From positions 1,669,001-1,733,000 of the forward strand of contig CAJNDT010004557.1 in NCBI GenBank assembly GCA_905221615.1: a stretch of DNA of 64,000 nt. Reading direction: 5' to 3'. Made by a program: the position numbers and the translations under genes. Below the pieces are notes generated by a model that worked only from the letters and a program-made list of their open reading frames with translations, did no database searches and had not been told where the DNA came from. The stretch comes from Symbiodinium sp. CCMP2592 (Eukaryota; Sar; Dinophyceae; Suessiales; Symbiodiniaceae). Positions 16,228 to 59,090 of the stretch are shown piece by piece. Every line of letters begins with the position of its first letter. Position 1 is the stretch's first letter.

Positions 16228-17462
16228 ATGTTTGAGTGCTTTGGATGCGGCATGGGGCACATACAGAGCCACTGCGACGGTGAATCCACAGAGTCCGAGT
16301 CCAATATTTCCAGTATAACGCATGTTCACGATCATGCGTATGAGTATGACTTGCAGAACCCTCATGATCTCATTCAGTTCCTGATTGACACGAAGATACG
16401 CTTGGTAAGCCTCAGGTATCTCATGGAATTACAGGAGGGTGGACGTTTGTGGCCACGCCGACAAGAAGCGGAGCACGACTTAGTTACGATGGACGAGATC
16501 GAGAAAAATTCTGCCCCCACCCACCTGTGCCGGATGACATTCACGGTTATTATGCCGGTGGAGCCTTTACGCGAAACGCCGAAGATCCAGTGCGGATCTA
16601 CACTGTCTCGCATTGCTGGGAGGCACAGCAACATCCGGACCCGTTTGGTTTTCAGTGCCGTAGGCTTCTGGATTGGTTCCGTTCGTCACGAAGTGAATAT
16701 GGAGGTACGTTTTATCCTGAGACATCGTGGTTGTTCATAGATTACATTTGCTTGCCACAGTACAAACGGACAGAGGAAGAAGAGGTGTGTTTCCGTCGTG
16801 CCATGAAAGCGATGCACGTGCTCTATGCACACGCAGCAATCTGGCATGTAATCCGCTTGGAAGACATTGCACCTTCTCTGCATTTCCAGCTGTCCGACTT
16901 CATCGAAATCTACTGTGAGAGCACCAACAAAGTCGAGCTGCGCCCCTTCGCCGAGTTGGTGCTGAACCGTGTCCCCTATTCTCAAAGAGGCTGGTGCATT
17001 GCCGAGGTTCAATGGATGAGCACCAAAGACAGCATATTTGGGTATGCCCCTCTGACTCCGGCCATGTTTCAAGAGCGGGTGAAGCGTGGGCTGGAGGATC
17101 AAGACGATGGGCTAGTATTGAAGTTCACGCATCGTGATGATCTAGACATTGTGGTGAGACTTCAGGAGACGGTATTTTTGAAGCACTCTCAGCAGCGGAA
17201 GAGGCTAGAGGCCTATTATTTGTCTTTAAATGAGCTGCAGGTCCTGGCTGAGACACTGCCGAGTTTCGCGAACTTGGAAATTCTAAGGGTTGTGCTTAAG
17301 TCGGCAGATGAGGAGTTGTTTAATGGGTGCATCGCAACGCTAAGGGCAGCCATCCCGCGTTGCAGGAGGCTGCACACAGCTACAGTGGCTGTTAACATGC
17401 CAGCTGTACAAGGGATCTCATACTGCAGCTATGACCTACTTGGGAGTTTCCGGGGACCCTAA
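16228..17462 (+). CDS. HET/TIR-like protein of a dinoflagellate-expanded family; apparent frameshift, MITE-derived end
   Basis: This is the only convincing gene in the left part. Reading from the ATG at 16,228, one frame holds LRYLMELQEGG and WPRRQEAEHD, a signature common in these dinoflagellate proteins. Near 16,504-16,518 (an A5 run, then a C5 run) the coding frame switches by one base, and the second frame continues with IYTVSHCWE, FIDYICLPQ, a helix ending MHVLYAH, and YSQRGWCIAE. That order (S-x-W, D-x-x-LPQ, RGWC-x-E) fits HET/TIR-like domains. No in-frame ATG opens the second frame, so one extra A or C in the run would restore a protein of about 410 residues. The last six codons and the TAA lie inside a MITE at 17,442. 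I cannot separate a real frameshift, a sequencing error and an unseen intron. Its biological role is unknown. Confidence 0.7.
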
Positions 17463-21009: not shown

Positions 21010-22215
21010 TTGTCAATAGGGTTTCAATATGAGGAGTGCATGTAATGTATTGGTTCGCCCTGTCCAGGAAGTGAAGAGAAACATTATAGCCCCTGCAATG
21101 TGCCAGTTTCTTCTGTCCGTAAGAAGGGCTTTCCGATGTATCAGCTTCATATCAAGAGGGCTTCAGTAGGATGAGTGGGCGTGACAGGTCAAAGGCTTGT
21201 AACGTGTTCGTTTGTTCTGTCTGGGGGCTTTCGAATGTATAAGTTCCTCGCCAAAAGAGTTTCGATAGGCGGGAGTGGAGTGACACATTAGAGAGTCTAT
21301 ATTGTGTCAGTTTGTTCTGCCCAGGGGCCTTCCAATATACAGGGTCGCTTCAGTGTATAAGTTCCTTGTCAATAGGTTTCCATGGGGAATGGAGTAACAC
21401 ATTAGAGGGTCTGTAATGTGTCAGGTCGCTGTGTCCAGGAGCCTTCCAAAGTAGGATTTTCCTTGTCAATATACTTTCAATAGAAGGGATGAAGTGACAC
21501 ATTAGAGGGCTTGTAATGTGTTAATTCGTTATGCCCAAGTCAATAGAGTTTGAACAGGGGAAGTGGAGTAACACTTTACAGGGCATGTAATGTGCCAATC
21601 TGTTATGTCCTGGACTTTCCAGTGTATAAGTTCCTTGTCAGTAGAGGGTCAATCGGAGTGGGTGGAGTGACACATTAGGGTGCCTGTAATATGTCAATTT
21701 GATATGCCCAGGTACAGGGGCCTGACAGTGTATAAGTTCCTTGTTAGTAGGGTTTCAGTAGGAGAAATGGAGTGACACATTAGAGGGCATGTAATATGTC
21801 AATTTGCCCAGTCCAGGACCCAGGAAGTGAAGATACACATTATAGTGGGTTTAATGTGCCAGTTTGTTATGTCCATAAAAAGTGCTTTCCGATGTATCAA
21901 TTTCTTATCAGTAGGGTTTCAATAGGATAGGTGGAGCGACACATTATAGGGCCTGCAGTGTGTCAGTTTATTATGTCCAGGGGTTTTCTAGTGGAAAAGT
22001 TCCATTGCAATAGAGGTTCCATAGGAAGGAGTGGAGTGACACATTAGAGGGCCTGTAATGCGTCAATTTATACTACCCAGAGACCTTCCAATATACAGAT
22101 GCCCTACAGTGTATAAGTTCCTTGCCTTTAGGGTTTCAATAGGAATAATGACACATTAGAAGGCCTGTAATGTGTCAGTTTGTTTTCCCATGTGCCTTCC
22201 AATGTATCTCTATAC
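21010..22215. repeat. Degenerate tandem array around a GACACATTAGAGGGC core
   Basis: A block containing GTGACACATTAGAGGGC, TGTAATGTGTCA, a CCAGG-CCTTCC part and TATAAGTTCCTTGTCAATAG recurs about nine to eleven times. Core spacing is 70-165 bp (near 21,282, 21,394, 21,496, 21,569, 21,669, 21,772, 21,937, 22,038 and 22,150). There is no coding potential. Divergence suggests an old satellite. Confidence 0.8.
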
Positions 22216-40782: not shown

Positions 40783-42511
40783 GCCATAAACCCTTATGCA
40801 TAGAACCCATATGGATCCCTTAAAGGAGCCCTTATGCACCCTGCGAATGTTGATACTATTTGGGTACATGGACCCTCAGGGTTACGACCGTCAGGAGCCG
40901 ATTCCGGAGGGACATCCTGTCTACCAGGAAGGATCTCTGGTTGTCGTCGGGAAGACCTTCGAAGAGGTGCTCTACGGTTTAAGGGTTCAAGGTTCTCAGG
41001 GTTTAGGTTGGAGGGCTAAGGGTCGGGGTTTATTTTGGCTCTAGGGTTGACGGCTTTATATAGGCTTTAGGCGAAGAGGTGCTTTAGGGTTTAAGGGTTT
41101 AGGGTTCAGGGTTTAGGGTGGAGGGCGAAGGGTTCCGGGAGTTTCGGAGTTTATATGTGGCTTTAGGGTTTACGGCTTGATACAGGCTTCAGGGTTTAGT
41201 TGAGGGTTGTTCACTGTCTTTGAAGGGGCTTACGGTGGTTTATGTGGGTTTTTATGCAATTGTCAGAGTGGCCTCGTGGTTTCTCTGGTTTTAGGGTTGT
41301 TGGTTCGGAGGCTTGGGTCGATCTAGCGGATCCAGTTCGGTTTCAGGGTTTTGGTTTAACGAAGCAGGGTTGGACCGACTGCAGCTTAGGGTTTAGAGTC
41401 TAGAGTTGTTGTTTTATTCCTGTGGTGACTAGACCCTAAACTCTCTACCGCAGGCCATGAAACAAAATCCATATGTTTCAGGGATGAAGGTGAACAGAGA
41501 AAGCATCCATAAAAGGCAAAGGCCATAGAACGTCGCATGTTGAGCCGACACTAATTCTCCAAAAGGTCTTGGGAATCCAAGATTCTGCTGGTATGTGCGG
41601 GCTCAGGGTTTGTCAAAGCGGCATTGTTCTTAATTAGCGCATGCTGTCACGCAACACCCTGCAGCAATTATTGAAGCCCCTGCCACACAATTATGTGACA
41701 GGTCGTGTCTCACCGCGACAAGGACGTTTTCATGCTGGTGCAGCTTTCCGGCATGTCGATGGCTCCAGCATGTTTCGTCAAGGTTTGAGTCGGCCTGTAA
41801 CTCGCTTTAAACCCCCGGCCCAGTTGGCAACAAAGGTCCAAGACTGCGACACCAAAGCTAAGCTTTGCAAGAGGTTTAGGACACAAACTTTCAGGAACCA
41901 GGGTGGTTTGTGCGCCATTTTACTGTACGGCTGTCGGGTCTTTGCTTGTTTCGTCGGTTGCGCTTTCAGGTTTCGGTTTCGTTGAAGCGATCTCATGAAG
42001 CACTTTTTGCTTGCGATCTTAGCGAAGTTTTCGGTGCTGTTTTTTGGAAAAGGCTTTGTAAGGTTCAAGGTGAACGCCTATGACTTCTATGACGTGTTTC
42101 AAGTCAACAGACACTAAGGCAAGTGCCTTGAAGTTTGTCCAGTCAGACAACATGTGCACCCGTCCCTCCGATACTCTCTTCATTCATCGATGCATGCATG
42201 CGTACGTAAATACATAGATAAGTTCTCTTTCTGTCTACGATATACACGCCCTTCCAGAGTACACTTGGGGCTGTGTAATAACCCCGCGCCTCTTCGTTCT
42301 GTGTTCGCTGGGCGCCTGTTGGAAGGATAGTGTTTTGGCTGGAAAAACGATAAGAAGAAAAAAAAAACGATAACGTCAGTTTATGATGCCAGTAGTCTTG
42401 TACATTATTTGCTGCTGATGGCTTGTATGTTGTGCATTCGCCGCGCCTGCAGAGTTCCACAACTCAAATCAAGCAGCTTCATCACAACCCTCACGAATGC
42501 ATTTCGCCAGG

Positions 42512-42905
42512 GATTCTAAATGCATTCGGGCCCGCGCACTCGGGGTTGGGAGGAGCATGGACCACGTTGGGCTTTTTCACGGCGATTTGAACACGCACTA
42601 ACCGCTTCGTCACCAACCTCGCGCATGCATTTTGGCACGGATTCTAAACGCATTTGCTCCCTGCACTCGGGTTTGGGAGCACGGGGTATCTTAGGCTTTT
42701 ACACGGCGATTTGGGCACGCACGAACCGCTTCGTCACCAACATCACGAATGCATTTCGGCACGGATTCTACATGCATTCGGGCCCGCGCACTCGGGATTG
42801 GGAGGAGCATGGGGCCAAATTGGATTTTTTCACGGCGGTTTGGGCACGCACAAACCGCTTCGTCACCAACCTCGCGAATGCATTTTAGCACGGATTCTAA
42901 ACTCG
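42512..42905. repeat. Tandem repeat of about 126 bp, three copies
   Basis: GGATTCTAAATGCATTCGGG, CCCGCGCACTCGGG, TTCACGGCGATTTG and AACCGCTTCGTCACCAACC recur in order with starts near 42,512, 42,642 and 42,766. The array marks the transition from the MITE-rich left part to the gene-rich right part. Confidence 0.85.
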
Positions 42906-43889: not shown

Positions 43890-44274
43890 CTTTCTAGGGG
43901 ACTGTATTTTGAGGAACAACGCCAGCATCCACCGCATCTTCAAGGTCCGACTGAAGCCGCTTCGGCTTGACATTGGGGCTGGTTCGAACTTATGCAACTT
44001 GATGAGAGTTCCTTGTCAGTCTCTGTCAGGAATGGCACTGCTGTCTTTCGAGCGGTACCCTGGAGACTTTATTCAAAGGGCGTTTGACGCAGGCCCGAAT
44101 CGTTACACTCAGGTTCTATTCAAGAGACAGACCCAACAGAGTTTGGTGATCGTTGCTTTTTGTTTGTCAGGTCCGAGGCCAATCACCAAATGGGGCAGCT
44201 TGGCATATTGCAGCGGAGAGCTGTCCTGGAACGTCGAGAATACCGACGAAAACAACGCGGCCCCTTGGTACGGT
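43890..44274 (+). CDS. Candidate coding exon(s), unrecognised
   Basis: One plus-strand frame reads LRNNASIHRIFKVRLKPL, then LSFERYPGDFIQRAF, then ITKWGSLAYCSGELSW before a GTATGT donor-like site at 44,275. The residue mix (Trp, Tyr, Arg, Asp) looks coding. No in-frame ATG was found at a sensible position, so the start lies in an upstream exon or is lost. A second frame over 44,172-44,275 (LERREYRRKQRG) is also plausible, so internal splicing is uncertain. Confidence 0.4.
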
Positions 44275-44410
44275 ATGTCATTATGTGTTTGCATACACAT
44301 GATGTATGCATGTCTGCAATACATGAATCAATCGGCGAATCAAGGTCCGAATATCGGTGAAGCGATGCCATTACCCCGTGGCGTGGGCTTTGAACGCCAC
44401 GGGGGCAGAT

Positions 44411-44677
44411 ATGGTGGCGTGGGTTGAGATGCTTGGTTGCCTATGGGAGAACTTTATAAAATTTTCGGCCTGGTGTATGTGGTCAGTTTTAACTTTCTGG
44501 GGCCTGGTTATGAGGATGTGGGCGATCCTGAACCACAGCAACTCCTGGGCCCGATTCTTGGCGGAGGAGGTGGCAAGTCACATGCTGCGCAAGATGACCA
44601 AGAAGGATGAGCGCTGGCCCGACTTTTCGCTACTAGGCGGCACCTTTGAGTTTTGGGAGTTTCTATTTCTCCAGTAG
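44411..44677 (+). CDS. Candidate small protein or exon with one hydrophobic segment
   Basis: From the ATG at 44,411 the frame runs 88 codons to TAG. It has a Trp-rich hydrophobic stretch (SAWCMWSVLTFWGLVM, likely one membrane helix), then a basic-acidic segment (HMLRKMTKKDERWPDF). It could be an exon of a gene shared with its neighbours; GGCCC|GA within it could act as a donor. No family recognised. Confidence 0.4.
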   Translation: MVAWVEMLGCLWENFIKFSAWCMWSVLTFWGLVMRMWAILNHSNSWARFLAEEVASHMLRKMTKKDERWPDFSLLGGTFEFWEFLFLQ

Positions 44678-44681
44678 TAAT

Positions 44682-45289
44682 ATGGTTCAGTTAGATGAAA
44701 GGACCCCAAGACCACAACCCAGGAAGTACTGGTCAGAAAAGACGAAGCTGGTCATGGAATACTTCCGCTCTTGCCACCACCAGTGTCTGGGTTGTGCTTT
44801 GGGATAATTTTTATTTTTCTGGTCTTTTATTACCTTATCCAGGGAACATATTCATACATAATTTGCCAAGGGCTTAAATGAAAACAGACCCAGGAAGCCC
44901 CCCAAGCGGGGAGACCACGGGGCACGCCACTGGGAAGCCCATTGTGAGCGGGTTTCGATGGATGAAGTGTGGTCCGACTGTCCCGGGCTTGCCTGGTGCT
45001 TACACAACCTCCAGGTGACCGATCCCACCACATGGTCCGATTCTTGGTTAGATGGAGATGGCAGGGATTTGGGTTGTTTTAGTGAAAAATCCAACTCAAA
45101 GACAGCTTCTTAGTCTTGTGAGCCTGCACTGATTGTCAGGACTTGCTGGGGCTGTACTGGGAAAACCACGTAGGGTCCGACTACCTCCTGGAACATATTC
45201 GCCACATGACGTCTGGGATCGAGTCGACCCGCAGCTTGGATTCCAACAATTATGTTCTGTTGTTTTGGGCCCGATTGTTCAAAATGTAA
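44682..45289 (+). CDS. Three-exon gene, about 143 residues, unknown function
   Basis: Model: exon 1 at 44,682-44,795 (MVQLDERTPRPQPRKYW), a GC-AG intron of 75 bp, exon 2 at 44,871-45,038 (HWEAHCERVSMDEVWSD), a GA-AG intron of 101 bp whose donor is GGTCC|GATT, and exon 3 at 45,140-45,289 (GLYWENHVGSDYLLEH to FWARLFKM and TAA). Phases match at both joins, and both downstream exons start with G after AG. The Trp/Asp/Glu-rich text is clearly protein-like in exons 2 and 3; exon 1 is less certain because another frame there is also plausible. No domain recognised. Confidence 0.45.
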
Positions 45290-45453
45290 CCCAATGCTAA
45301 CCTTAAACCCTGCTGTCTTCATAGGCCTTTGGGGTTGTGCTGTAGTCAACCGACCTGCTATCTACGAACCTCGTCTGGACATGTCCGACTTGCGAGAGCG
45401 TAAACCCTGAACCAAACATCCCTGCAATACGGGCTTCGTCCTTGCTACTAGGG

Positions 45454-47931
45454 ATGGATAAAACCCTAAACCTGAATCGAGGTCCGCGCAGAGGCCGCTG
45501 GGATGATGTTGAAACCGCGCGGCGGCGGCAGGTTCACAACCTCATCTCCTTCTATAATGAGAAGATGAGGTTCTGCCGGTCCGAGAGGCCCGATTATAAA
45601 AAGGACCCTGCCCCGAGTTTCCGCGATGACACTGATGATGAGGCCTGGCTGGGGCAAGGATGCTGTTTGGCTTGTGTTTTTGGTTGTGCCTGCCTTTTCC
45701 CTGATGAGGCATGGGGGTCCGGTCCGAGTGCAGCTGCTGGCCCGAGTGCAACGCCGAAGGAGTGCTGTGACATAATAATTCTGGGCTGCAGATAATAACT
45801 AACTGAGCATGAATCGGATATTTCAATTCAAGTGACAGAGAGACCCTGCAGGAGCCATCCCATCCACCACCTGGCCACACACCACCTGGGCCACCATCGG
45901 CGCCATCGGGACCACCACCTCCGCCGCCACCAGCCAATCCACCGGGCCCTCAGGACTAGTGTGGCCTTAATTAATTAAGTAAGTAAGTTGCATTGCCATC
46001 ATGAATCAGATAATCAGCTGACCTGGCAGGATCCTGCCCCACCTCGGTCCGATTCACGTCCAACACCGAAGGCGGAGCATCCTTACTGCTATGACTCATG
46101 ATATGGATTGAGCTGCCAGGCACCGCCCCGTGAGATCCGAAAGAAGGCCAACAAGGCTCCCAAGGGATTCGTTGGGAGTCTACTGATTCTTTCGGCCCGA
46201 TTCTTGCCAGGCAAGCTTCGATGATGATGCCACCGGCATCCCCCAGCCGAAGACACCTCCGGAGGTGGGTTGGTATTTCCGGTTTCCAGACGTCAATTAG
46301 TCATTTTATAAATTACTGTAATGTGCAGGCAGCATCGTCTTCTGCTCAAGCTGGGCCCGATGCATCGTCCTTGGTCTGAGATGGGTTTGCGTGAGGAGTG
46401 ATATTTTGGTTCACAAGTCAGCAGACTGTCTGTCTGACTCTTGACTGAGGCAGCGGACCAAGATCGGACGCCTGGCCCGAAGGCTATGGATGGGTTTGGC
46501 AGAGTTTATTGTTGCACATTGGCCAGTTGACTCGACGTTTAGTCATACAGGCTGGCAAATCTGGCGAAAGCAGTGCTGAGAAGTGGCTCAAGGCCACTGG
46601 TATCTTTGCATCTGAGTGTTGTTCTGCTGCTTTGTTTCTTCAGAATTCTGTCCAGGCAGAAGGACAAGAAGAAGACAAAGAAGATGTTGCTTGTCAGAGT
46701 TTGGCGACATCTTCATTGATTTAAACAATGACATGTGGACTCCGATTCGACATGCTATCCAGCTGAGGATCACAAAGCCGAAGACAAAGAAGTTGCTTGG
46801 GCAATGTTTTGCTAGCCATACAATGTCGAGTCAGTGAAAGTGAAATGTGGGCCGATTCGACATACTATCCAGCCTAGGCCACCAACACCAAAGGCACGGC
46901 CGAAGCCTCGGGAGTTGCTTGGATGCAATGATTTGAGAGTGACATCTTGGCCCGGTTCATCAGTTAGACTAGACATGTCATAACTGAGCATGACATGTGG
47001 ACCCATTCGACATGCCATCCAGCCTAGGCCGACGACGGGTCCAAGCGTGTCGAAGGAGTTGCTTGGTAATTCAATTCGACAAAGCCATTGCAGAGTGGCA
47101 TGTGGGGCGATTCGACATGCTGTCCAGCCAAGGCCACAGAGGAGCACAAGGTCCAGGAGTCCAAGGGAGTTACTTGGATCAAGCAGACTGCATGCCGACT
47201 CACATGTGAGCTTGACATGTTGCAGATGTTTATTTACATTTCGAACATTGCAGTAGCTATTCAACTTAGGTCCAAGAAGATGACGGCCAAGGCAAGTCAT
47301 CCAAGGCCACCGACGGCTTTGCTCGGTCGACACCAACATTATGCAAACTCATATGTGGGCTTCACATGTTGCACATTTAAATTGTTTTGAATTGCAGTAT
47401 CTATCCGAAAGGAGGCCGATGACAGCCGCCAAGAGTCATCAGCCGCTGCCGATCCCAAGGGCGTTGCTTGATCATACGAGCAGATGCAGTCCATGGTGGC
47501 ATGCAAGATTTAAAGACTTGGGCAAATGAAATGGACAGCCTAGGTACGGGCCGAATGCAAGGTTCCCAACACCGTTACTTGGCCTGGTATCAGTGCATCA
47601 TAGCCTTGTTGTATTTGTTCTTGTCTCACTAACCGGACCACCACTCTCAACTTTGCAAGTGACACTTGCCAATCCAACCCAGGAGCCCCAAGCCAATGCC
47701 AGCGATCCTCCGACCCCCGGCGTTGCATGGCCTGCAACCAGCATCAGACTCGTGTGTGTCATTGTGTGTTGCCTCTTGAATTAACCAACAGTCTCAACTT
47801 TTCAAGTGCCACATCGAACCTAGGTCGATTCCAGGTCCGAGTCCGAGGCCAAAGCCAAAGCAGAAGCCAATGCCACGGCCACCAGTGACGCCACGGCCGC
47901 CACGGGCGAACATTTGGGCGTGAGTCACTAG
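45454..47931 (+). CDS. Microexon gene: about 19 phase-0 exons, hydrophilic acidic protein, homologous introns
   Basis: The ATG at 45,454 opens exon 1 (to 45,642; RGRWDDVETARRRQV). Exons follow at 45,709-45,759, 45,852-45,953 (Pro-rich), 46,030-46,071, 46,120-46,164, 46,211-46,291, 46,329-about 46,358, 46,450-46,482, 46,551-46,598, 46,656-46,682, 46,768-46,788, 46,878-46,910, 47,028-47,054, 47,133-47,165, 47,270-47,314, 47,412-47,459, 47,544-47,570, 47,683-47,718 and 47,824-47,931 (TAG). Every listed exon except the uncertain end of exon 7 is a multiple of three, begins with G after AG and reads as hydrophilic peptide (ATEEHKVQESK, EADDSRQESSAAADPK, SESEAKAKAEANATAT). From about 46,120 the introns share a 5' end like GGAGTTGCTTGG, and from 46,740 a 3' end like ATGCTATCCAGCCTAG. 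Donors are GC, GA or, at face value, GG (slidable by one base). The GTGAGT inside the last exon may be a donor leading to exons at 48.1 kb. Function unknown; probably a disordered protein. Confidence 0.55.
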
Positions 47932-48107
47932 GCCATCGGCTCGAATGGCTGCGTTTTTTTCATGCATGGACCGATTAGATTGAACTTAAAGGTGTTTACT
48001 TGACTTTTAAAGTCTCAAGTCAAGACACTGGCATCTTGAATTGGTTCATGCAAGACGTATAACAGCACTCTGCAATTTAATTGCTGTTCGGCGAGCTTTG
48101 AATCCAG

Positions 48108-48511
48108 GGAGCTCAATCTGCTGCAGCTGGGAAAAACTGGGTCCTGGGTTGGATCAGCTGTGACTCACAGTCATTGGCCGTCTTGTTGCTTATTTGCATC
48201 TGACTATAAACCATGATATTGTTTTGTTTCTGGCTTTGCATGGCAAGGCTGTGCTCCTTCACTGGAAGCAGTGCCAAACCCTCAGCTCACAAGCTGCAGG
48301 CTTCTGACTGTTGTGTCGCACTTATTTCAATTTCAATGCAGGAGGATGAGTGCTCAAAGTCCGAGGACTTTGGCATCACTGGTCTGTTGAGTTTTGTTTT
48401 TTGTTGAGCCTGTGAGTCAGTGCTGGCAGGAGGCCGGTGGCCTATGGTCGGACACTGGTCAGCTTCAGTGATTCTTGCCAGCCAGGACCTGAGATTGAAT
48501 GGAAATCCTTC
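48108..48511 (+). CDS. Probable further exons of the microexon gene or of a neighbour
   Basis: Short protein-like segments follow AG|G acceptors in phase 0: 48,108 onward (GAQSAAAGKNWVLGW), 48,342 onward (EDECSKSEDFGIT, then GGTCTGTTG, resembling the intron starts upstream), 48,430 onward (EAGGLWSDT, then GGTCAG) and about 48,485 onward (DLRLNGNPS). They continue the style of the gene at 45,454-47,931. Joins were not resolved. Confidence 0.35.
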
Positions 48512-48529
48512 AGTTAAATAATAAAGCCT

Positions 48530-49271
48530 TGCCATATTCGGACATGTGGGATGCAGGGGATCCTGTGCTGGCCCTGGTTCACTATCATGTTACCGTTGTT
48601 CATCTTCATTTTGAAAGTTGCAACTTGTCTGCCAGTGTCCACCGGTTACCAGAGACACTCTGTGCCAACTCGATGGTACTGCTCCTTTGTCTTGTAGATG
48701 CAGGATCACGTGTGCATGCTCTAGTCTAGATTGCTGTTGAGTTGTGGCCCGAAAAAACCGTTGGCACTCGTGACCTGCAACCATGGCCAACAACAAACAG
48801 CTGACTGTATGTACTTCACTTATGTTTTGGAATCAGCAGCAGCTTGTCATCGAGTGAATTGGCAGCAAAGAGCCGCGTGCGTATGATGGTTGGCCCGAAT
48901 AAGAGCCGCATGTCTGCAGCTTCAAGTCAAGCTCATGCATGCCAGAAGTGGTGAGGCAGCCAGTGCAATCACTAAACAACTGTGCTATCACTCCCAATCC
49001 TTGCCCTGGAACTTCGTTGCTATGTAGTCATTTCAATCCGATTCGTGAGTAATTAATTCAAGAAGAGGTTAAATACAGGCCTGGCATGATGTGAAGCTGA
49101 CCTGCAACAGCCAGCTGAGTGTGCTTTATGTTGCCTTTGTTGGTATCCTCGAAATTTGAACGCATCCGCTCGAAAGCCCAGGGTTTTATGCTCGAAAGGG
49201 CAAGCGGGGTAGTGCACAGCAGTTCGGCGCTTAAACAGCAACCCCGGCTCCTGTGATGGAAAAGGTGAGTC

Positions 49272-49320
<49 letters not shown>

Positions 49321-49490
49321 TGTGTTCAAGTCAAATCAAGCCAAAGCCATGAGGTCCAGGACTGCCAGCATTCCGGGCATCTCCTCATGTCAGAGCCTCA
49401 ATGACTTATGCACAGTGTAACTGTGACCTACAGCCTCTGCTTCCTTCTTGAGCCCTTCACTTCTGGGACTTCCAGCCTGATTCTCTCTTG
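48530..49490. other. Unassigned DNA with a (GT)n tract
   Basis: I could not place exons here. A (GT)n microsatellite of about 20 units lies at 49,274-49,317. Isolated AG|G sites occur, but no convincing peptide chain. Confidence 0.4.
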
Positions 49491-49496
49491 TGAAAC

Positions 49497-49845
49497 ATGT
49501 CCAAGCAAGGGCCAGACACAGAGGAGGAACGGTTTCATGCAGTCCGACTCATGGCCAGGCCGCCTGAGCTGCTTGCAGCATTTGACATGGTCCGAGTCAA
49601 GGCCAGGCCACCGATGCAGTACTTAAGTGCGACAAGTTGCACGGACCAAAGCCTTGTCATCACAGTCAGCATGGTAGTTCGAGAATCAGCACTAGCACAA
49701 TGAAATAGGAGACTGCTGAGCGCTTCATGAGCCAACCTTTGCAAGGATCGGTATCGGGCCTTGTGAGTGCTTGGGCATTTAACGGCTACTTGCTCAGGTG
49801 GTGGCCGAATCCATGGACTATCGGACGAAGACAGGCCAGACCTAG
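49497..49845 (+). CDS. Two-exon small gene, about 59 residues, unknown function
   Basis: ATG at 49,497 in a favourable context (AACATGT). Exon 1 (49,497-49,628) reads MSKQGPDTEEERFHAV and MVRVKARPPMQY. A GC-AG intron of about 169 bp leads to exon 2 at 49,798-49,845 (VVAESMDYRTKTGQT and TAG), phase 0 on both sides. Read without splicing, exon 1 would continue to 49,703 with less protein-like text. No family recognised. Confidence 0.45.
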
Positions 49846-50388
49846 CATGGCTTCTACCTGTTGAAAGGACAATCCTAGGACAGTTGGCATCAGAGATGTG
49901 TGCTGCACCCAGGCCTGGATGCCTGCTGCATATCGATTTGATTCATGTGTGGCGTATGCTTTCTTGTTGTACTTATTAGACATCCACCTTGATTATTTGG
50001 CAGGCTTTGCAAAGTGTCCATGGTGGAGTCGAGTGCCATGCTCAGACTGAAGCCTGGGCCAAGTGATTTGTGCAGATGGCATCCTCAGGGATAACTTAGT
50101 AAGTTTCTTCAGCTGAACACAGACCCTGTTTGGGTTGCAGTTGTTCAGGCTCGGACATTGGAGTCCTTTGCCGATCCTGGAGTTTGGGCAGGCCGGGTAA
50201 CCCCAGAATGTAAACATGAATCTGCCGATTCCTGATCCACAGCTTTTGTATGAATATTTGGCCCCAAACCCCGTTCCATGACTCCTTGGACTTCAACTGC
50301 AGCTGGCAAAAGCTTCCCTTGGAATTCTGGAAGCCACTGTGGATCGAGGGATTCAGTGCCCCAAGGCTCCAAGAGAGAAGGCTGGACC

Positions 50389-50892
50389 ATGGATCGTGGT
50401 GGCCCGATGAAGCGTCCAGCTGCTCATGGTGGCCCGATGAAGCGTCCAGCTGCTCATGGTGGCCCGATGAAGCAGCCAGCTACCAAGGCTCATGGCCCGA
50501 TGGTGCGGCCAGCTGCTGTGACGAAGGTTCGCAGTGGCCCGATTGTTCGTCCAGCTGCTGTGATGAAGGCTCCCAAGGCTAAAGCTGTGCCCAAGATCCC
50601 GAAGGAGGCAGTGGAGCAGATGATGGTGGCGGAACATGAGGCCGAAGGACCGGGTCCGAATCCTTCGAGTCCACCGAACATCCCTGTGGTCATCGAGCTC
50701 TTGGCACGCCACCTGGTGGCCCAGCGCTTCTCCAACTGCTATGTCAAGCGCCACATCCGGCAGATCAAGCCCTACATGACTATGGATGAGCTCATTGCCT
50801 TTGTCCGAAGCAGGTTGGTACAGGCTGGTGTCCAGGAGGAGTTCATGCAAAACTTGCTGGATGTCGCTCAGTCTGAGTGGCTTGCAAACTAA
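50389..50892 (+). CDS. Intronless gene, 167 residues, GPMKRPAA repeats plus helical C-terminal domain
   Basis: I chose the ATG at 50,389 because it sits in ACCATGG and opens the repeat; the frame is open upstream to another ATG at 50,278, but that text looks less protein-like. Residues 4-33 are three perfect or near-perfect 30-base repeats encoding GGPMKRPAAH, followed by diverged copies (GPMVRPAAV, GPIVRPAAV) and a Lys/Ala/Pro segment. The last 70 residues (VVIELLARHLVAQRF, MTMDELIAFVRSRLV) are predicted helical and may form a small fold. MKRPAA-type repeats are frequent in dinoflagellate proteins, often in basic tails. Function unknown. Confidence 0.7.
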   Translation: MDRGGPMKRPAAHGGPMKRPAAHGGPMKQPATKAHGPMVRPAAVTKVRSGPIVRPAAVMKAPKAKAVPKIPKEAVEQMMVAEHEAEGPGPNPSSPPNIPVVIELLARHLVAQRFSNCYVKRHIRQIKPYMTMDELIAFVRSRLVQAGVQEEFMQNLLDVAQSEWLAN

Positions 50893-51900
50893 TGAGGGTG
50901 TGAGGTAGAGTAGGGTCCGAGTCCGAGTGAGGTAGTCTCCAGAACTCCGAAGAACATGAAAAACATAAGCACGAGGTACTTACACAGTCAATAGGGGCAA
51001 GGTGAGAAACACTCGGGCCCGATTTATGATCAAGCATCATTGTCAAGGGACACCCAGTCCACGGCGATCGCAAAATTCGAGCGGGCTCAGCACTGTCTAC
51101 CAAAGTTTGCTCCATCACCACAAGAATCGACAACAGCCGGTTTACCCCATGAACCCTTTGCTCACCATTTTTTAGTTGCTGCTGCCATGCAGGTTGCCAC
51201 CTTGTCTTCGCCCAGCTGTGTGGACCTTGGTCGGTAGGTCTCAGGTCAAATTGGGCACCACATGCAATTTGTGAGTCAGCAGAGCATGATGATGATACAG
51301 CATTTTTGCAATTGGCTCATGTTCAGTTTCTTGCACAGTAAGGTCCGAATCATACAGCCTTGGACTGGGTCCGATTGCGCTGGCAACTCAGGGAGTGATG
51401 CTGCCAACCGCAAATCTTTATTATTAAAGTAGTGCTAGAGGGTTGCCTTCTGAAATAAAGCTTTGCAGGCCCTACTTTGTTCTCCAGATTGCAGTCAGCT
51501 CCATGAACCATGATTAACACTTTAGCAACACTGCTAAAGCTGATTAGTATGACTAAATCCAAGCTTGCTGCATTGCCTTTTGCTTTGCATCCAAACCGCA
51601 CAGAGCTCCTGATGTAGGGCTGACAGGCCCCACCAGCAGGCATGACGCATGACAAGATTAGCATTGATTGCTACAATGAATGATTCTAAACTTCATTTGA
51701 ACCAACTTGAAACTTGCTGCATACTACATGTTTCCACTTGAAACCCATTCTTGTAATGATTACCACTGTCCCCACAACGTGTTTAGCACAGGCAGAGTGA
51801 ACCATTGGTAACGTGAGAAAAAGTTCTTGTATTGTTAATTAATTGAAACCTATTGTATAATGATTACTTACTAATTATGCAGAGCCTTCTGGCAGGGCCC
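50893..51900. other. Spacer between the MKRPAA gene and the satellite
   Basis: No gene called. Four GGYCCGA heptamers lie between 50,914 and 51,368. AT-rich sequence begins near 51,680 and grades into the satellite. Confidence 0.4.
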
Positions 51901-51929: not shown

Positions 51930-54530
51930 GGCATAGCCTTACTCGGGCAGGCCTTACTGGCAGGGCCCACCAGCAGGGCCCGCCACTCTCCCCAGAAAGC
52001 CGTTGAACACAAGCAATGTGAACCATTGTTGACAATAGAACAATTACTTTGTTTTTAAGAAAGTCTTTTACAAAGGCAAGCAAAACCATGGTTAACAATA
52101 GAACAACAAATTTGATTTTAAATTGAAACCTATTGTATTGATTACTAACTTCTGAGGCATAGCCTTGCCCGGGCAGGGTCCTCCAGTGGGCCCCGCCGGC
52201 GGGGCCCGCTACCCTCCCCAGAAAGCAGGTTAACACAGGCAATGTGAACCATTGATTGTTGACAATAGAACAATTACTTGGATTTCAATTGGGTCCACCA
52301 GCGGGCCCCGCCGGGGGACCCCACCAGCAGGGCCCACCACTCTGCCCAGAAAGTGTTTAACACAGGCATACAAAACCATTGTTAACAATAGAACAACTAA
52401 TTTGTTTTTGAAATGATGACTAACTTATGAGGCAGAGCCTTGTGGGGCTGGCCAGCGGGCCCCGCCAGTGGGGCCCAACAGCGGGGCCCGCCACTCTGCC
52501 CAGAAAGTGTTTAACTATTAACACAGGCATACAAAACCATAACAATAGAACAACTAATTTGTTTTTGAAATGATGACTAACTTATGAGACAGAGCCTTGT
52601 GTGGGGCCCGCCAGCGGGCCCCGCCAGTGGGGCCCAACAGCGGGGCCCGCCACTCTGCCCAGAAATCGTTTAACGCAGGCATACAAAACCATTGTTAACA
52701 ATAGAACAACTAATTTGTTTTTGAAATGATGACTAACTTATGAGACGGAGCCTTGTGGGGCCGGCCAGCGGGCCCCGCCAGTGGGGCCCAACAGCGGGGC
52801 CCACCACCCTGCCCAGAAAGCGTTTAACACAGGCATACAAAACCATTGTTAACAATAGAACAACTAATTTGTTGTTGAAATGATGACTAACTTCTGAGAC
52901 GGAGCCTTGTGGGGCTGGCCAGCGGGCCCCGCAAGTGGGGCCCAACAGCGGGGCCCGCCGCTCTGCCTGCCCAGAAAGCGTTTAACACAGGCAAGCAAAA
53001 CCATTGTTAACAATAAGACAAATAATTTGTTTTTAAATTGAAACCCGATTGTTACTAACTTATGAGGCAGAGCCTTGACTTGTGGCCCACCAGCGGGCCC
53101 CGCCAGTGGGGCCCACCAGCGGGGCCCGCCACTTTGCCCAGAAAGCGTAGTTTAACACAGGCAAGCAAACCCATTGTTAACAATAGAACAACTAATTTGT
53201 TTTTACATTGAGACCCAATTGTATTGATTACTAGCTTATGACAGGCATAGCCTTGCTCGGGCAAGCCCTCCAGCGGGCCCCGCCAGCGGGCCCCGCCGGC
53301 GGGGCCCACCAGCGGGCCCCACCAGTGGGGCCCACCAGCGGGGCCCGCCACTCTCCCCAGAAATGTTTAACACAGGCAAGCAAAACCATTGTTAACAATA
53401 GAACAACTAATTTGTTTTTACATTGAGACCCAATTGTATTGATTACTAGCTTATGACAGGCATAGCCTTGATCGGGCAAGCCCTCCAGCGGGCCCCGCCG
53501 GCGGGGCCCGCCAGCGGGCCCCGCCAGTGGGGCCCACCACGGGGCCCGCCACTCTCCCCAGAAAGCGTAGTTTAACACAGGCAAGCAAAACCATTGTTAA
53601 CAATAAAACAACTAATTTGTTTTTAAATTGAGACCCAATTGTATTGATTATTAGCTTCTGACAGGCATAGCCTTGCTCGGGCAAGCCCTCCAGGGGGCCC
53701 CGCCGGCGGGGCCCGCCAGCGGGCCCCGCAAGTGGGGCCCAACAGCGGGGCCCGCCACTCTGCCCAGAAAGCGTTTAACACAGGCAAGCAAAACCATTGT
53801 TAACAATAAGACAAAAAATTGTTTTTAAATTGAAACCCGATTGTATTGATTACTAACTTATGAGGCAGAGCCTTGTGTGGCCCACCAGCGGGCCCCGCCA
53901 GTGGGGCCCACCAGCGGGGCCCGCCACTTTGCCCAGAAAGCGTAGTTTAACACAGGCAAGCAAACCCATTGTTAACAACAGAACAACTAATTTGTCTTTA
54001 CATTGAGACCCAATTGTATTGATTACTAGCTTATGACAGGCATAGCCTTGCTCGGGCAAGCCCTCCAGCGGGCCCCGCCGGCGGGGCCCACCAGTGGGCC
54101 CCACCAGTGGGGCCCACCAGCGGGGCCCGCCACCCTCCCCAGAAAGCGTAGTTTAACACAGGCAAGCAAAACCATTGTTAACAATAGAACAACTGATTTG
54201 TTTTTAAATTGAGACCCAATTGTATTGATTACTAGCTTATGACAGGCATAGCCTTGCTCGGGCAGGCCCTCCAGGGGCCCCGCCGGCGGGGCCCGCCAGC
54301 GGGCCCCGCCGGTGGGGCCCACCAGCAGGGCCCACCACGGCCCGCTGCTCCCGACCACTGGTGGCGGGGCCCGCTGCTGGTGGTGGGGCCCGCTACTCCC
54401 CCTGCTGGTGGCGGGGCCCGCTGCTCCCCACCACTGGCGGCGGGGCCCGCTGCTGGTGGCGGGGCCCGCTACTCCCCCTGCTGGTGGTGGGGCCCACTAC
54501 TGTCCCCAGAAAGCCTAAAGCATTTAAATA
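51930..54530. repeat. Satellite of 155-215 bp units with GC-rich palindromes
   Basis: About thirteen units carry AGAAAGCGTTTAACACAGGC, AACCATTGTTAACAATAG, CAACTAATTTGTTTTT, GATTACTAACTTATGAGGC and AGCCTTG, then a GC block made of GGGCCCCGCC and GGGGCCCGCC. AGCCTTG starts at 52,161, 52,436, 52,592, 52,749, 52,903, 53,072, 53,249, 53,464, 53,669, 53,869, 54,044 and 54,250. Unit length varies through the number of GGGGCCC blocks. Minus-strand frames rich in Gly/Pro/Ala are by-products. Confidence 0.9.
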
Positions 54531-57108: not shown

Positions 57109-57379
57109 TGACCGACGTTTCACGCCATGCAGAGTCAAATCACAGCTGATCTCCAGTCTTGCTGTCCCATCTTGGTCCAGTCTCTCCAGGCAGTGGTATG
57201 GTCAAGTGGGCAATTGTGCTACCTTGTTTTGGCCAGGTCTGGAATGCATGTTCACCGGCAATGACAGCACTGGTGGCTTCTGTTGAAGGCACAGAGCAGT
57301 TAGTTAAGATTGTTTATTTGCAACTTATAGAGCCTTTGGAAGTGAGGCTTTCCTCCTGTGGTACTGCCACTGGAGCGGC
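57109..57379. other. 3' flank of the 347-residue gene
   Basis: No gene or repeat recognised; a short frame at 57,159-57,407 has no support. Confidence 0.3.
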
Positions 57380-58104
57380 AGTAGTGGCCGAGCTGCTTTG
57401 GCTATAATCCCAAGCAGCAGACGGGCAAATGTCAATGTACAATAGGACATAAGGGGTTGCTAACATTTTGTTAGCCGGCCCAGCAGTAGTTGCTGAAAAT
57501 GCTTTGCTACAGCCACCAGAGCAGCAGCGGCGGCCGAGCTGCTTTGGCTATCATAATAAGCAGCAGACAGGCACATGCAACACGCCAATAGTACATAAGG
57601 GGTCACTAACATTTTGTTAGCAACCCCCTTCTGGCCGCAGTAGTGGAGGAAATTTTTTTTGCTACAGCCACCGGAGCAGAGCAGCAGTAGTGGCGGAGCT
57701 GCTTTCGCTATCCTAAGCAGCAGATGGGCAAATGTCAAGACAAAATAGGACATAAGGCATCGCTAACATTTTGTTAGCGACCCCTTGTGGGAGCAGTAGT
57801 GGACGAAAAATTGCTTTGCTACAGCCACCGGAGCAGCAGTAGCGGCCGAGGTGCTTTGGCTATCCTAAGCAGCAGACGGGCAAATGTCAAGACAAAATAG
57901 GACATAAGGCATCGCTAACATTTTGTTAGCGACCCCTTGTGGGAGCAGTAGTGGCCGAACAATTACTTTGCTTCAGCCACCAGAGCAGCAGTAGCAGCCG
58001 AGCTGCTTTAGCTATCCTAAGCAGCAGACGGGCAAATGCCAACACAAAATAGGTGCCAGCAGTAGTGGACAACAAACATGCTTTGCTACAGCCAACCGAC
58101 CATA
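57380..58104. repeat. Tandem repeat of about 150 bp (CTTTGCTACAGCCACC unit)
   Basis: Units contain TTTGCTACAGCCACCGGAG, AGCAGTAGTGGCCGAGCTG, CTTTGGCTATCCTAAGCAGC, AGACGGGCAAATGTCAA and a hairpin CGCTAACATTTTGTTAGCG. Starts lie near 57,505, 57,658, 57,817, 57,967 and 58,080. No coding call. Confidence 0.85.
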
Positions 58105-58155
58105 GGTGCCAGCAGTAGTGGACAACAAAAATGCTTTGCTACAGCCAACCGACCA

Positions 58156-58507
58156 GTGCCAGCAGTACTAGCAGCCCAGAACCTGAACTTTACTCCAATT
58201 TAGCGATGCCTTAACCGATGTGACGGCCAAATGCCACAACGCATCGCTAACAATTTGTTAGCGATGCGTTGTGGCATTTGGCACCCAATAAAATAATGAA
58301 ATTTATATATTTCATTATTTTTTTTGAACCAATATCTCCTTAGGCATCGCTAAGTTCAAAATTGCATTAACTTTTTTGGTGCCAAATGCAATAAGGCATC
58401 GCTAACAAATTGTTAGCGATGCGTTGTGGCATTTGGCCGTCACATCGGTTAAGGCATCGCTAAATTGGAGTAAAGTTCAGGTTCTGGGCTGCTACTACTG
58501 CTGGCAC
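58156..58507. mobile_element. Foldback element with 130-bp arms
   Basis: The left arm starts GTGCCAGCAGTACTAGCAGC and the right arm ends GCTGCTACTACTGCTGGCAC. The arms pair nearly base for base through TTACTCCAATTTAGCGATGCC and a nested hairpin GCATCGCTAACAATTTG. About 90 bp of AT-rich DNA lies between. Partial symmetry continues outside the arms to about 58,104 and 58,557. Confidence 0.85.
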
Positions 58508-58568
58508 AGGTCGGGTGGCTGCAGCAAAGTATTTTTGTCCACTACTGCTGCCACAAGGGTACTAACCT

Positions 58569-59090
58569 TTGTTATTTCTTTTTGTAGATAGGCACCACCG
58601 TCAACGCGGGGGGCTGCGCCCCCCGCACCCCCAGCTTCTGGGGGGCTGCAAAATTCATTGCAAATTCACATTTCTCCGGTTGCTGATTCCAAACAGCAAT
58701 AAGCAGCTTCACAGCTGCTGCTGCTCTGGTGGCTGTAGCAAACCATTTTTTGTCCACTACTGCTGCCTTAAGAGTACTAACCTCCGTTTTTTTTTTGTAC
58801 ATAGGCACCACCGTCAACGCGGGGGGCTGCGCCCCCCGCACCCCCTGCTTCTGGGGGGCTGCAAAATTCATTGCAAATTCACATTTCTCTGCTTGCTGAT
58901 TCCAAACAGCAATAAGCAGCTTCGCCGCTGATGCTGCTCTGGTGGCTGTAGCAAAGCTTTTTTTGTCCACTACTGCTGCCTTAAGTACTAACCTCCATTT
59001 ATTTATTTTGTACATAGGCACCACCGTCAACGGGGGGCTGCGCCCCCCGCACCCCCTGCTGGGGGGCTGCCAACATTACATTGAGCCTTG
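58569..59090. repeat. Tandem repeat of about 216 bp with GGGGGCTGCGCCCCC hairpin
   Basis: Two and a half units contain GGCACCACCGTCAACGCGG, GGGGCTGCGCCCCCCGCACC, TTCATTGCAAATTCACATTT and GCTCTGGTGGCTGTAGCAAA, the last being the inverse of the unit in the array at 57.4-58.1 kb. The 216-bp period keeps a minus-strand frame open for 152 codons. Confidence 0.85.

What the first reader, a model, noticed from the sequence alone, without database searches (positions are those of the whole stretch)
45454..47931. Array of phase-0 microexons separated by homologous short introns
From about 46,120 to 47,930 some fourteen exons, mostly of 21-48 bases, are spaced 90-150 bases apart; apart from the uncertain exon 7 each is a multiple of three. 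The exons are unlike each other except for being acidic and hydrophilic. The introns instead share their ends: 5' GGAGTTGCTTGG-like (also GGATTCGTTGGG, GATGTTGCTTGT, GGCGTTGCTTGA), and in many copies 3' CATGCTATCCAGCCTAG-like. Shared intron ends with unrelated exons fit repeated insertion of one intron family (introner-like) into a coding sequence better than exon duplication. Because every unit is phase 0, any exon could be skipped without breaking the frame.
Basis: partly seen in the sequence, partly recalled or inferred. Interest (0 to 1): 0.88.

Follow-up and report, generated by a model that had tools for sequence, protein, structure and literature searches.

The report
Tandemly duplicated microexon-intron array in Symbiodinium
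In a coral-symbiont-type alga, a gene for an acidic protein carries a row of tiny exons separated by look-alike introns, and comparison of its copies indicates that whole intron-plus-exon units were duplicated and lost side by side rather than introns being inserted by a mobile element.

Summary
Nine array introns (46,686-47,823) enclose eight microexons of 24-51 nt, all multiples of three, plus a terminal exon stopping at 47,931. The genome is Symbiodinium (probably CCMP2592). Three paralogs (~92-93%) support the exon-intron model: exon indels against them are all multiples of 3, intron indels mostly not. No transcript was available.

Origin: tandem gain and loss of intron+exon units. A distant paralog class carries introns in the order (1)-3-4-3-4-5-7-8 (an ABAB duplication; the first assigned by position); another has only three; three paralogs have an extra 33-nt exon whose apparent loss in the window gene left a hybrid intron with 5-nt microhomology. 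Introner insertion is disfavoured: 43 of 44 genome-wide hits of an intron-3'-end motif lie in this gene family (0.45 expected by chance), though the motif misses diverged members, and target-site duplications and terminal inverted repeats are absent. Unexplained: introns are 3-4 times more similar than exons between window-type and L-type copies, while upstream flank diverges as much as exons. Known kind (tandem exon arrays, micro-exon genes) in a new lineage.

The parts
46686..46767 (+). array intron 1 (82 nt, GTTGCTTGT..CAGCTGAG)
   Evidence: taken as counterpart of F2 intron J1 by position (J1 scores z 8.9 with it, 10.0 with intron 3)
46768..46791 (+). microexon E1, 24 nt, DHKAEDKE
46792..46877 (+). 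array intron 2 (86 nt)
46878..46913 (+). microexon E2, 36 nt (54 nt in paralog L013, +18)
46914..47027 (+). array intron 3 (114 nt); matches F2 introns J2 and J4
47028..47057 (+). microexon E3, 30 nt (42 nt in paralogs L011-L013, +12)
47058..47132 (+). array intron 4 (75 nt); matches F2 introns J3 and J5
47133..47168 (+). microexon E4, 36 nt
47169..47269 (+). array intron 5 (101 nt); matches F2 J6 and an F3 intron
47270..47317 (+). microexon E5, 48 nt (42 nt if the in-phase GA donor 6 nt upstream is used)
47318..47411 (+). array intron 6 (94 nt), most similar to intron 5; begins TT instead of GT in all seven aligned copies
47412..47462 (+). microexon E6, 51 nt (48 nt if it starts at 47415)
47463..47543 (+). 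array intron 7 (81 nt); matches F2 J7 and, at its 3' end, an F3 intron
47544..47573 (+). microexon E7, 30 nt
   Evidence: F3 counterpart 48 nt
47574..47682 (+). array intron 8 (109 nt); hybrid of the two introns that flank an extra 33-nt exon in paralogs, joined at TTGTC
47683..47721 (+). microexon E8, 39 nt
47722..47823 (+). array intron 9 (102 nt), most similar to intron 8 and paralog intron 8b
47824..47931 (+). terminal exon E9, 108 nt including TAG stop
   Evidence: in all nine copies checked the frame stops within 42-108 nt of the exon start
46656..46685 (+). exon e, 30 nt, just upstream of the array
46120..46655 (+). upstream short exons 0 (46120-46155 with an AAG|GC donor), a 46211-46264, b 46329-46373, c 46450-46488 or -46482, d 46551-46598 or -46592, with introns not belonging to the array family
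   Evidence: 3n indel in exon a; 23-nt indel after 46155; boundaries partly chosen for phase 0, so their phase is not independent evidence

Best explanation
This is the 3' part of one member of a multi-copy Symbiodinium gene family that encodes an acidic, hydrophilic, low-complexity protein. Its last part is a tandem array of units, each one short intron plus one phase-0 microexon. The array grew and shrank by duplication and deletion of whole units, most likely through unequal or ectopic recombination between the similar introns. Shown by sequence: unit number and order differ between paralogs (3, 8, 9 and 10 array introns), one paralog class has an ABAB repeat of a two-unit module, and the window gene has a hybrid intron where paralogs have two introns and an exon. 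Because every unit is phase 0 and a multiple of three, gain or loss of a unit leaves the frame intact. Inferred, not shown: that the introns are spliced as drawn, that the protein is made, that the window state is a loss, and that recombination was the mechanism of each event.
For: Contiguous blocks of similar introns {1-4},{5,6},{8,9} (neighbour similarity reached by 163 of 20000 shuffled orders). F2 introns J1-J8 best match window introns 3 (z 10.0; intron 1 close at 8.9), 3, 4, 3, 4, 5, 7, 8; J2-J4 z 11.8 and J3-J5 z 12.2 against J2-J3 4.4, J3-J4 4.4, J4-J5 4.3 and J2-J5 3.5. Paralogs L011, L012, L013 carry 164 nt more in intron 8, containing acceptor, 33-nt exon and GTTA-type donor; window intron 8 is 5' of 8a plus 3' of 8b, joined at TTGTC. 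F3 class (three loci parsed) has only three array introns, with exons of 30, 36 and 48 nt. 24-mer search: 43 of 44 hits in family loci, reversed control 0. Exon indels 15 of 15 entries 3n, intron indels 1 of 19. All nine copies checked end in an in-frame stop. Other tandem arrays, mostly of 105-213 bp period, in the same 64 kb.
Against: Exons are much less similar than the introns beside them. Codon-level anchored tests tie exons to intron blocks (17 of 20000), but this scheme was tried after others had failed, with one codon trimmed from each end it fades (308 of 4000), and nucleotide-only trimmed and local tests show nothing. If exons had diverged as the introns did, local exon z would average 5.6-8.2; the highest of 45 pairs was 3.0, and 2.7 and 2.0 for pairs 8/9 and 5/6. 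Identity over aligned columns, unlike z, does not separate the ABAB pairs (J2-J4 74%, J3-J5 82%, J2-J3 85%, J4-J5 74%; gapped alignments). At the E7/E8 boundary an intron-only difference is not excluded: F2's single 81-nt exon could correspond to E7 plus E8. Polarity of the intron-8 change rests on the extra unit being too diverged to be new. F2 has in-frame stops in two exons as parsed. No transcript. The 24-mer search is blind to diverged members: of F2's eight introns it hit one per locus.
Confidence: 0.8

Rival explanations
1. Introner-like elements: one mobile intron family inserted repeatedly into a pre-existing coding sequence, each time in phase 0.
For: Introns more alike than exons. 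Introners are reported in Symbiodinium microadriaticum (PMC9860276, one section read). Phase 0 is less surprising than it looks, since 70 of 116 G bases in the spliced core are at codon position 1. The genome-wide motif search would miss diverged copies.
Against: No significant copy elsewhere in 64 kb (best outside hit E 0.074 with the 8/9 profile). 43 of 44 genome hits of the 3'-end 24-mer are in the gene family. No TSD (mean 3.1 nt, cross control 3.0) and no TIR (11.3 vs 10.7 shuffled and 11.6 cross). No unusually stable fold. ABAB collinearity, and exon differing together with intron.
Confidence: 0.08
2. Mixed history: most units by tandem duplication, but one or two introns (for example between E7 and E8, or E5 and E6) inserted into or lost from an existing exon by reverse splicing or local transposition.
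For: F2 has one 81-nt exon where the window has E7 (30) plus E8 (39). F3's 36-nt exon starts like E5 and ends like E6 (by eye).
Against: E5 plus E6 (99 nt) is far longer than F3's 36 nt or F2's 42 nt. Introns 5/6 and 8/9 are each other's closest relatives within the window, as a unit duplication predicts.
Confidence: 0.1
3. Not a gene: a decayed noncoding tandem repeat, or coding on the minus strand (178-aa ORF 46812-47348 with repeated GLGWxxCRxxPH).
For: The minus-strand ORF is open and repetitive, and in L011 and L012 the indels inside it (+12) keep its frame too. No protein homolog for the plus-strand model. F2 has in-frame stops in two of its exons as parsed.
Against: Plus-strand exon indels all 3n, intron indels mostly not, across three paralogs. 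Frame-0 periodicity in plus core exons (LLR 9.2), none on the minus ORF (best of three frames -5.2). A 10-nt insertion in intron 3 of L013 lies inside the minus ORF and breaks its frame. No Pfam family on the minus ORF.
Confidence: 0.06

Closest known systems
Tetrahymena 90-bp-exon leucine-rich-repeat genes (PMC6564038, passages read)
   Same: Tandem arrays of symmetric exons with one intron phase; unit numbers vary between paralogs; the authors infer successive duplication and ectopic recombination.
   Different: There exons are exactly 90 bp, phase 2, encode LRRs and number in the tens of thousands. Here exons are 24-51 nt, phase 0, variable in length and of low complexity, and introns are more alike than exons.
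Schistosome micro-exon genes (PMC4350168, passages read)
   Same: Most of the coding region in very small symmetric exons, so exons could be skipped without frame loss.
   Different: Unrelated organism and protein; alternative splicing and secretion are reported there, neither was testable here.
Aphid bicycle and megacycle genes (PMC9168663, passages read)
   Same: Many small same-phase internal exons in fast-evolving genes; megacycle is read as internal tandem duplication with shared intron positions.
   Different: Phase 2 (bicycle) rather than phase 0; unrelated proteins.
Dinoflagellate introners (PMC9860276 section 7; PMC7789003, PMC10522408, PMC11453091 passages)
   Same: Related introns in dinoflagellate genes.
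   Different: Here no TSD, no TIR or unusual hairpin, one of 44 motif hits outside one gene family, ABAB order.
Intron gain by tandem genomic duplication (PMC4974935, search listing with the start of the abstract only)
   Same: Tandem duplication as a source of additional introns.
   Different: That title concerns a single gain in a potato gene; here units that already carry an intron and an exon are multiplied.

Membership tests
Introner element family | copies in many unrelated genes across the genome | tested here: not met
   44 hits of the intron-3'-end 24-mer (<=3 mismatches) in 1.098 Gb, 43 in this gene family (blind to diverged members, e.g. hit one of eight introns in each F2 locus); apart from family loci the array query matched one 160-bp place, which corresponds to the region upstream of the array (counts there are lower bounds)
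Introner element family | target-site duplication flanking the intron | tested here: not met
   own 3.1 vs mismatched pairs 3.0 nt; many published introner families also lack TSDs
Introner element family | terminal inverted repeats / hairpin | tested here: not met
   (11.3 vs 10.7 shuffled and 11.6 cross); fold z -1.06 to 0.70 for nine introns; not all published introners have TIRs
Introner element family | presence/absence of intron with flanking exons unchanged | tested here: inconclusive
   exon plus intron differ together in L011-L013; E7/E8 versus the F2 81-nt exon is ambiguous
Tandemly duplicated exon-intron array | neighbouring units most similar / modules repeated in order | tested here: met
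   introns:
Tandemly duplicated exon-intron array | copy number of whole units varies between relatives | tested here: met
   array introns 3 (F3), 8 (F2), 9 (window), 10 (L011-L013):
Tandemly duplicated exon-intron array | exons of duplicated units homologous | tested here: inconclusive
   significant only in the codon-level test with exon-end codons included
Micro-exon gene (as an architecture) | most coding exons very short and symmetric | tested here: met
   E1-E8 24-51 nt, all 3n, 3n indels; the 5' end of the gene is not settled
Micro-exon gene (as an architecture) | exon skipping generates protein variants | not testable with these tools
   no RNA data held

The most novel reading that the evidence does not exclude
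The array is an evolvable exon-cassette system in a protist: look-alike introns serve as recombination (and perhaps splicing) handles and stay alike, while the microexons between them diverge and are swapped in and out in frame, so that the gene family generates protein variants by unit turnover and possibly by exon skipping.
Probability: 0.2. Interest if true: 0.75.

Novelty: new variant of a known kind. Interest (0 to 1): 0.52.

Why it matters
It shows, within one genome and with different states preserved in paralogs, how a run of microexons can arise without mobile introns: whole intron-exon units duplicate in order and can be deleted through intron-intron joining. It also warns that 'many similar introns in one gene' is not by itself evidence for introners, even in dinoflagellates where introners exist. 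The excess similarity of introns over exons between paralogs is a concrete open puzzle that can be tested with the many copies in this genome and its relatives.

Tried and rejected
Hairpin or consensus RNA structure in the introns: none. Rfam: no hit at gathering scores in the window; one sub-threshold hit (E 0.35) in 45,400-48,700. Pfam on the spliced model: one sub-threshold hit, Sec16, E 0.25; on the minus-strand ORF none. Protein homologs of the spliced 343-aa and 510-aa models: none at E 0.001 and E 1; both models contained an extra 'exon 10' and the doubtful exon x1, and the 510-aa one joined a downstream ORF by guess, so these are weak negatives. Exact intron-end 20-mer in viral and prokaryote contigs: one hit each, taken as chance; a profile of introns 1-4 scores only that 3'-end stretch in them. 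An early idea that exons evolve four times faster than introns through selection was dropped: synonymous sites are also raised and the upstream flank differs by about 7% like the exons, so the odd class may be the introns. Exon x1 (45454-45642), exon 10 (48342-48380) and the original end of exon 0 were dropped or revised after seeing paralogs. Exon-block tests: the global-DNA Mantel tests (5346 and 4056 of 20000) and local DNA (within 0.91, between 0.83) were negative; local amino acids leaned positive (0.95 vs 0.25); the anchored codon test was positive (17 of 20000; 0 and 4 of 4000 on repeats and 0-81 of 4000 with other gap costs, 185 of 4000 with amino acids only, 160 of 4000 with nucleotides only); trimming or using the preceding exon (1414 of 4000) removed it.

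Full report
What the window is. The 357-aa ORF at 16,389-17,459 has an unnamed best hit (P0001, 95%) and its named hits are Symbiodinium proteins. The window's contig is 1,825,280 bases long, the same length as the contig given for P0005, named Symbiodinium sp. CCMP2592; that the genome is CCMP2592 is an inference from this match. The genome has 1,098,105,373 bases in 5,383 contigs. Dinoflagellates use GT, GC and GA donors (PMC11453091, passages), which allows several donor choices in the upstream exons.

The array. Nine introns lie at 46,686-47,823. Within the window a profile of the nine finds these nine and nothing else below E 5.5; the separate block profiles find at best E 0.074 outside the array. 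Introns 1-4, 5/6 and 8/9 form blocks of neighbours; the sum of neighbour similarities is reached by 163 of 20000 shuffled orders, and by 234 of 20000 when the ends are removed. The link of 7, 8 and 9 to 1-4 is weak within the window alone (leave-one-out: 6 of 9 recovered, two of them only at E 0.045-0.065). The eight enclosed exons are 24, 36, 30, 36, 48, 51, 30 and 39 nt. The upstream introns at 46,171-46,655 are not hit by the family profile.

Is it coding and spliced? No transcripts were available. Indirect evidence is strong. Three further loci are nearly identical to the window copy (99.3-99.7% over the 6.5-6.9 kb compared) and carry no indel in the core, so they add little. Three loci are paralogs at about 92-93% (L011, L012, L013). 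In alignments of the window copy with these, exon indels are 9, 6, 6, 12, 15, 3 (L011); 9, 18, 12, 15, 3 (L012); and 18, 12, 15, 12 (L013, core only). Intron indels are 4, 23, 5, 1, 2, 164, 1; 23, 5, 1, 2, 164, 1; and 1, 6, 10, 2, 164, 1. Thus 15 of 15 exon entries are multiples of three against one of 19 intron entries. Many of these are the same event seen in more than one copy; the exon class uses the revised exon 0 and leaves out x1, which has indels of 4 and 1. The terminal exon ends in an in-frame stop in all nine copies checked: four window-type, three L-type, one F2 and one F3. Frame 0 has the best codon periodicity in the core (9.2; 99% of shuffles 4.5), not significantly so upstream (1.7; 4.8). 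Against: F2 as parsed has a stop in two exons, and intron 6 begins TT in all seven aligned copies; an in-phase GA lies 6 nt upstream.

How it arose. Four kinds of relatives were found by searching the whole genome with the array (counts are lower bounds, 40 of 45 candidates scored). (i) Window type: four loci. (ii) L type: three loci plus a partial one (C2027). The three have 164 extra nt within intron 8: intron 8a, a 33-nt exon (EPLEPDVRPED in L012) and intron 8b. Window intron 8 equals the 5' part of 8a joined to the 3' part of 8b, with the shared TTGTC at the junction. Since 8a and 8b are far more diverged from each other than the loci are, the simplest reading is loss of exon plus intron parts in the window lineage; a duplication in the L lineage is less likely. 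(iii) F2: 15 loci with about 70% identity over part of the array; the four that were fetched are nearly identical to each other (98.998-99.712% where aligned). Parsed from L015, its eight introns match window introns 3 (with intron 1 close behind and favoured by position), 3, 4, 3, 4, 5, 7, 8. J2 matches J4, and J3 matches J5, far better than neighbours match each other (z 11.8 and 12.2 against 4.3-4.4): an ABAB duplication of a two-unit module. Plain identity over aligned columns does not show this (74% and 82% against 85% and 74%), because the alignments of unlike introns are short and heavily gapped. (iv) F3: 15 loci with a 46-bp match; three were fetched and parsed and have only three introns of the family, with exons of 30, 36 and 48 nt and a terminal exon with TAG. 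Array size therefore varies from 3 to 10 introns.

Why not introners. A 24-mer of the intron 3' end with up to three mismatches has 44 matches in the genome: 16 in the four window-type loci, 12 in the three L-type, 15 in F2 and one elsewhere (C1680, three mismatches); the reversed control has none and 0.45 are expected by chance. The limits of this test: the motif marks the intron 1-4 type only, and in F2 it hit one intron per locus although four or five belong to that type, so diverged copies elsewhere would be missed. Dispersal of the other types was tested only through the whole-array search, which matched family loci and one 160-bp place corresponding to 46,159-46,308, upstream of the array. 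TSD and TIR tests were negative and folds ordinary. A protein search of the spliced core found only the terminal-exon part at the four window-type loci, so no intronless copy was seen; that search is weak for so biased a composition, since it missed even the L-type loci.

Exon homology between units. Results are mixed and are told in full. Global DNA alignment shows no link between intron and exon similarity. Local DNA alignment shows none on average, though exons 8/9 rank second and 5/6 fifth of 45 pairs, and 5/6 first at the amino-acid level. Codon-level end-to-end alignment, tried after those, ties exons to intron blocks (17 of 20000; 0-81 of 4000 under other gap costs), but mostly through the first and last codons (308 of 4000 after trimming one codon each side; 2348 of 4000 trimmed with nucleotides only). 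Exons in duplicated units have diverged more than their introns, mainly through whole-codon indels.

An unexplained asymmetry. Between the window copy and L011, L012, L013, core exons differ at 27/372, 25/372 and 35/375 sites and core introns at 15/843, 13/843 and 24/843, a ratio of 3.3 to 4.4 (Fisher 8e-6, 7e-6 and 4e-6, not independent). Without E9 the excess remains (16/294, 16/294, 17/294; P 0.003, 0.0008, 0.03). Among L copies there is no excess (4/384 vs 16/1010; 11/384 vs 26/1010; 13/384 vs 27/1010). Changes seen only in the window copy are 21 in exons and 6 in introns, changes seen in one L copy only 9 and 27. dS is 0.10-0.135 and dN 0.063-0.090. The upstream flank, presumed noncoding, differs by 7.0% (W-L011) and 6.8% (W-C152), 1.7% within L, while the downstream side differs by 0.5-0.7% (48,381-48,870) and 2.4% (49,325-50,253, W-L013). 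So the exons behave like the upstream flank, and the introns and downstream side are unusually alike. Gene conversion with exon differences kept by selection, constraint on introns, or a complex history of exchange could each do this; I cannot decide.

Placement. The closest known kinds are Tetrahymena 90-bp-exon LRR arrays, schistosome micro-exon genes and aphid bicycle/megacycle genes (passages only). Searches for 'microexon' with 'dinoflagellate' gave three papers, unrelated by title, 'micro-exon' with 'Symbiodini' none, 'exon duplication' with 'dinoflagellate' and 'intron' one, on Tetrahymena, and 'Symbiodini' with 'unequal crossing' and 'exon' five, listings only, none on such an array by title. 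So no report of such an array in dinoflagellates was found by these searches, in a library that holds open-licence papers only. Verdict: a new variant of a known kind, in a new lineage, with unusually clear different states among paralogs.

Noticed in passing
window 44000-50900 versus L020, L021, L022: At least 6.5-6.9 kb around the array exists in three further copies at 99.3-99.7% identity: recent segmental duplication, or uncollapsed assembly copies.
   Followed up: partly
G000 contigs C29, C37, C417, C1345, C1684, C1698, C1813, C3001: On eight contigs an F3-type match and an F2-type gene lie about 8-9 kb apart in the same orientation: a tandem pair that has been amplified (from coordinates).
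   Followed up: no
46686-47823 versus L011-L013: Core introns are 3-4 times more similar than exons between window-type and L-type copies, but not within L-type copies; upstream flank diverges like exons.
   Followed up: partly
47318-47319: Intron 6 begins with TT rather than GT, GC or GA in all seven aligned copies.
   Followed up: partly
46812-47348 minus strand: 178-aa open frame with repeated GLGWxxCRxxPH, most likely a by-product of the intron repeats.
   Followed up: yes
50254-50892: ORF with an in-frame 30-bp repeat (GGPMKRPAAH); 22/609 differences to a copy on C2027.
   Followed up: no
21236-21817, 42476-42902, 52298-54338, 57362-58167, 58514-59083: Several other tandem arrays, mostly of about 105-213 bp period, in the same 64 kb.
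   Followed up: no
16389-17459: ORF 95% identical (over 88%) to an unnamed protein P0001 and related to a large Symbiodinium family, some members named NLRC3.
   Followed up: no
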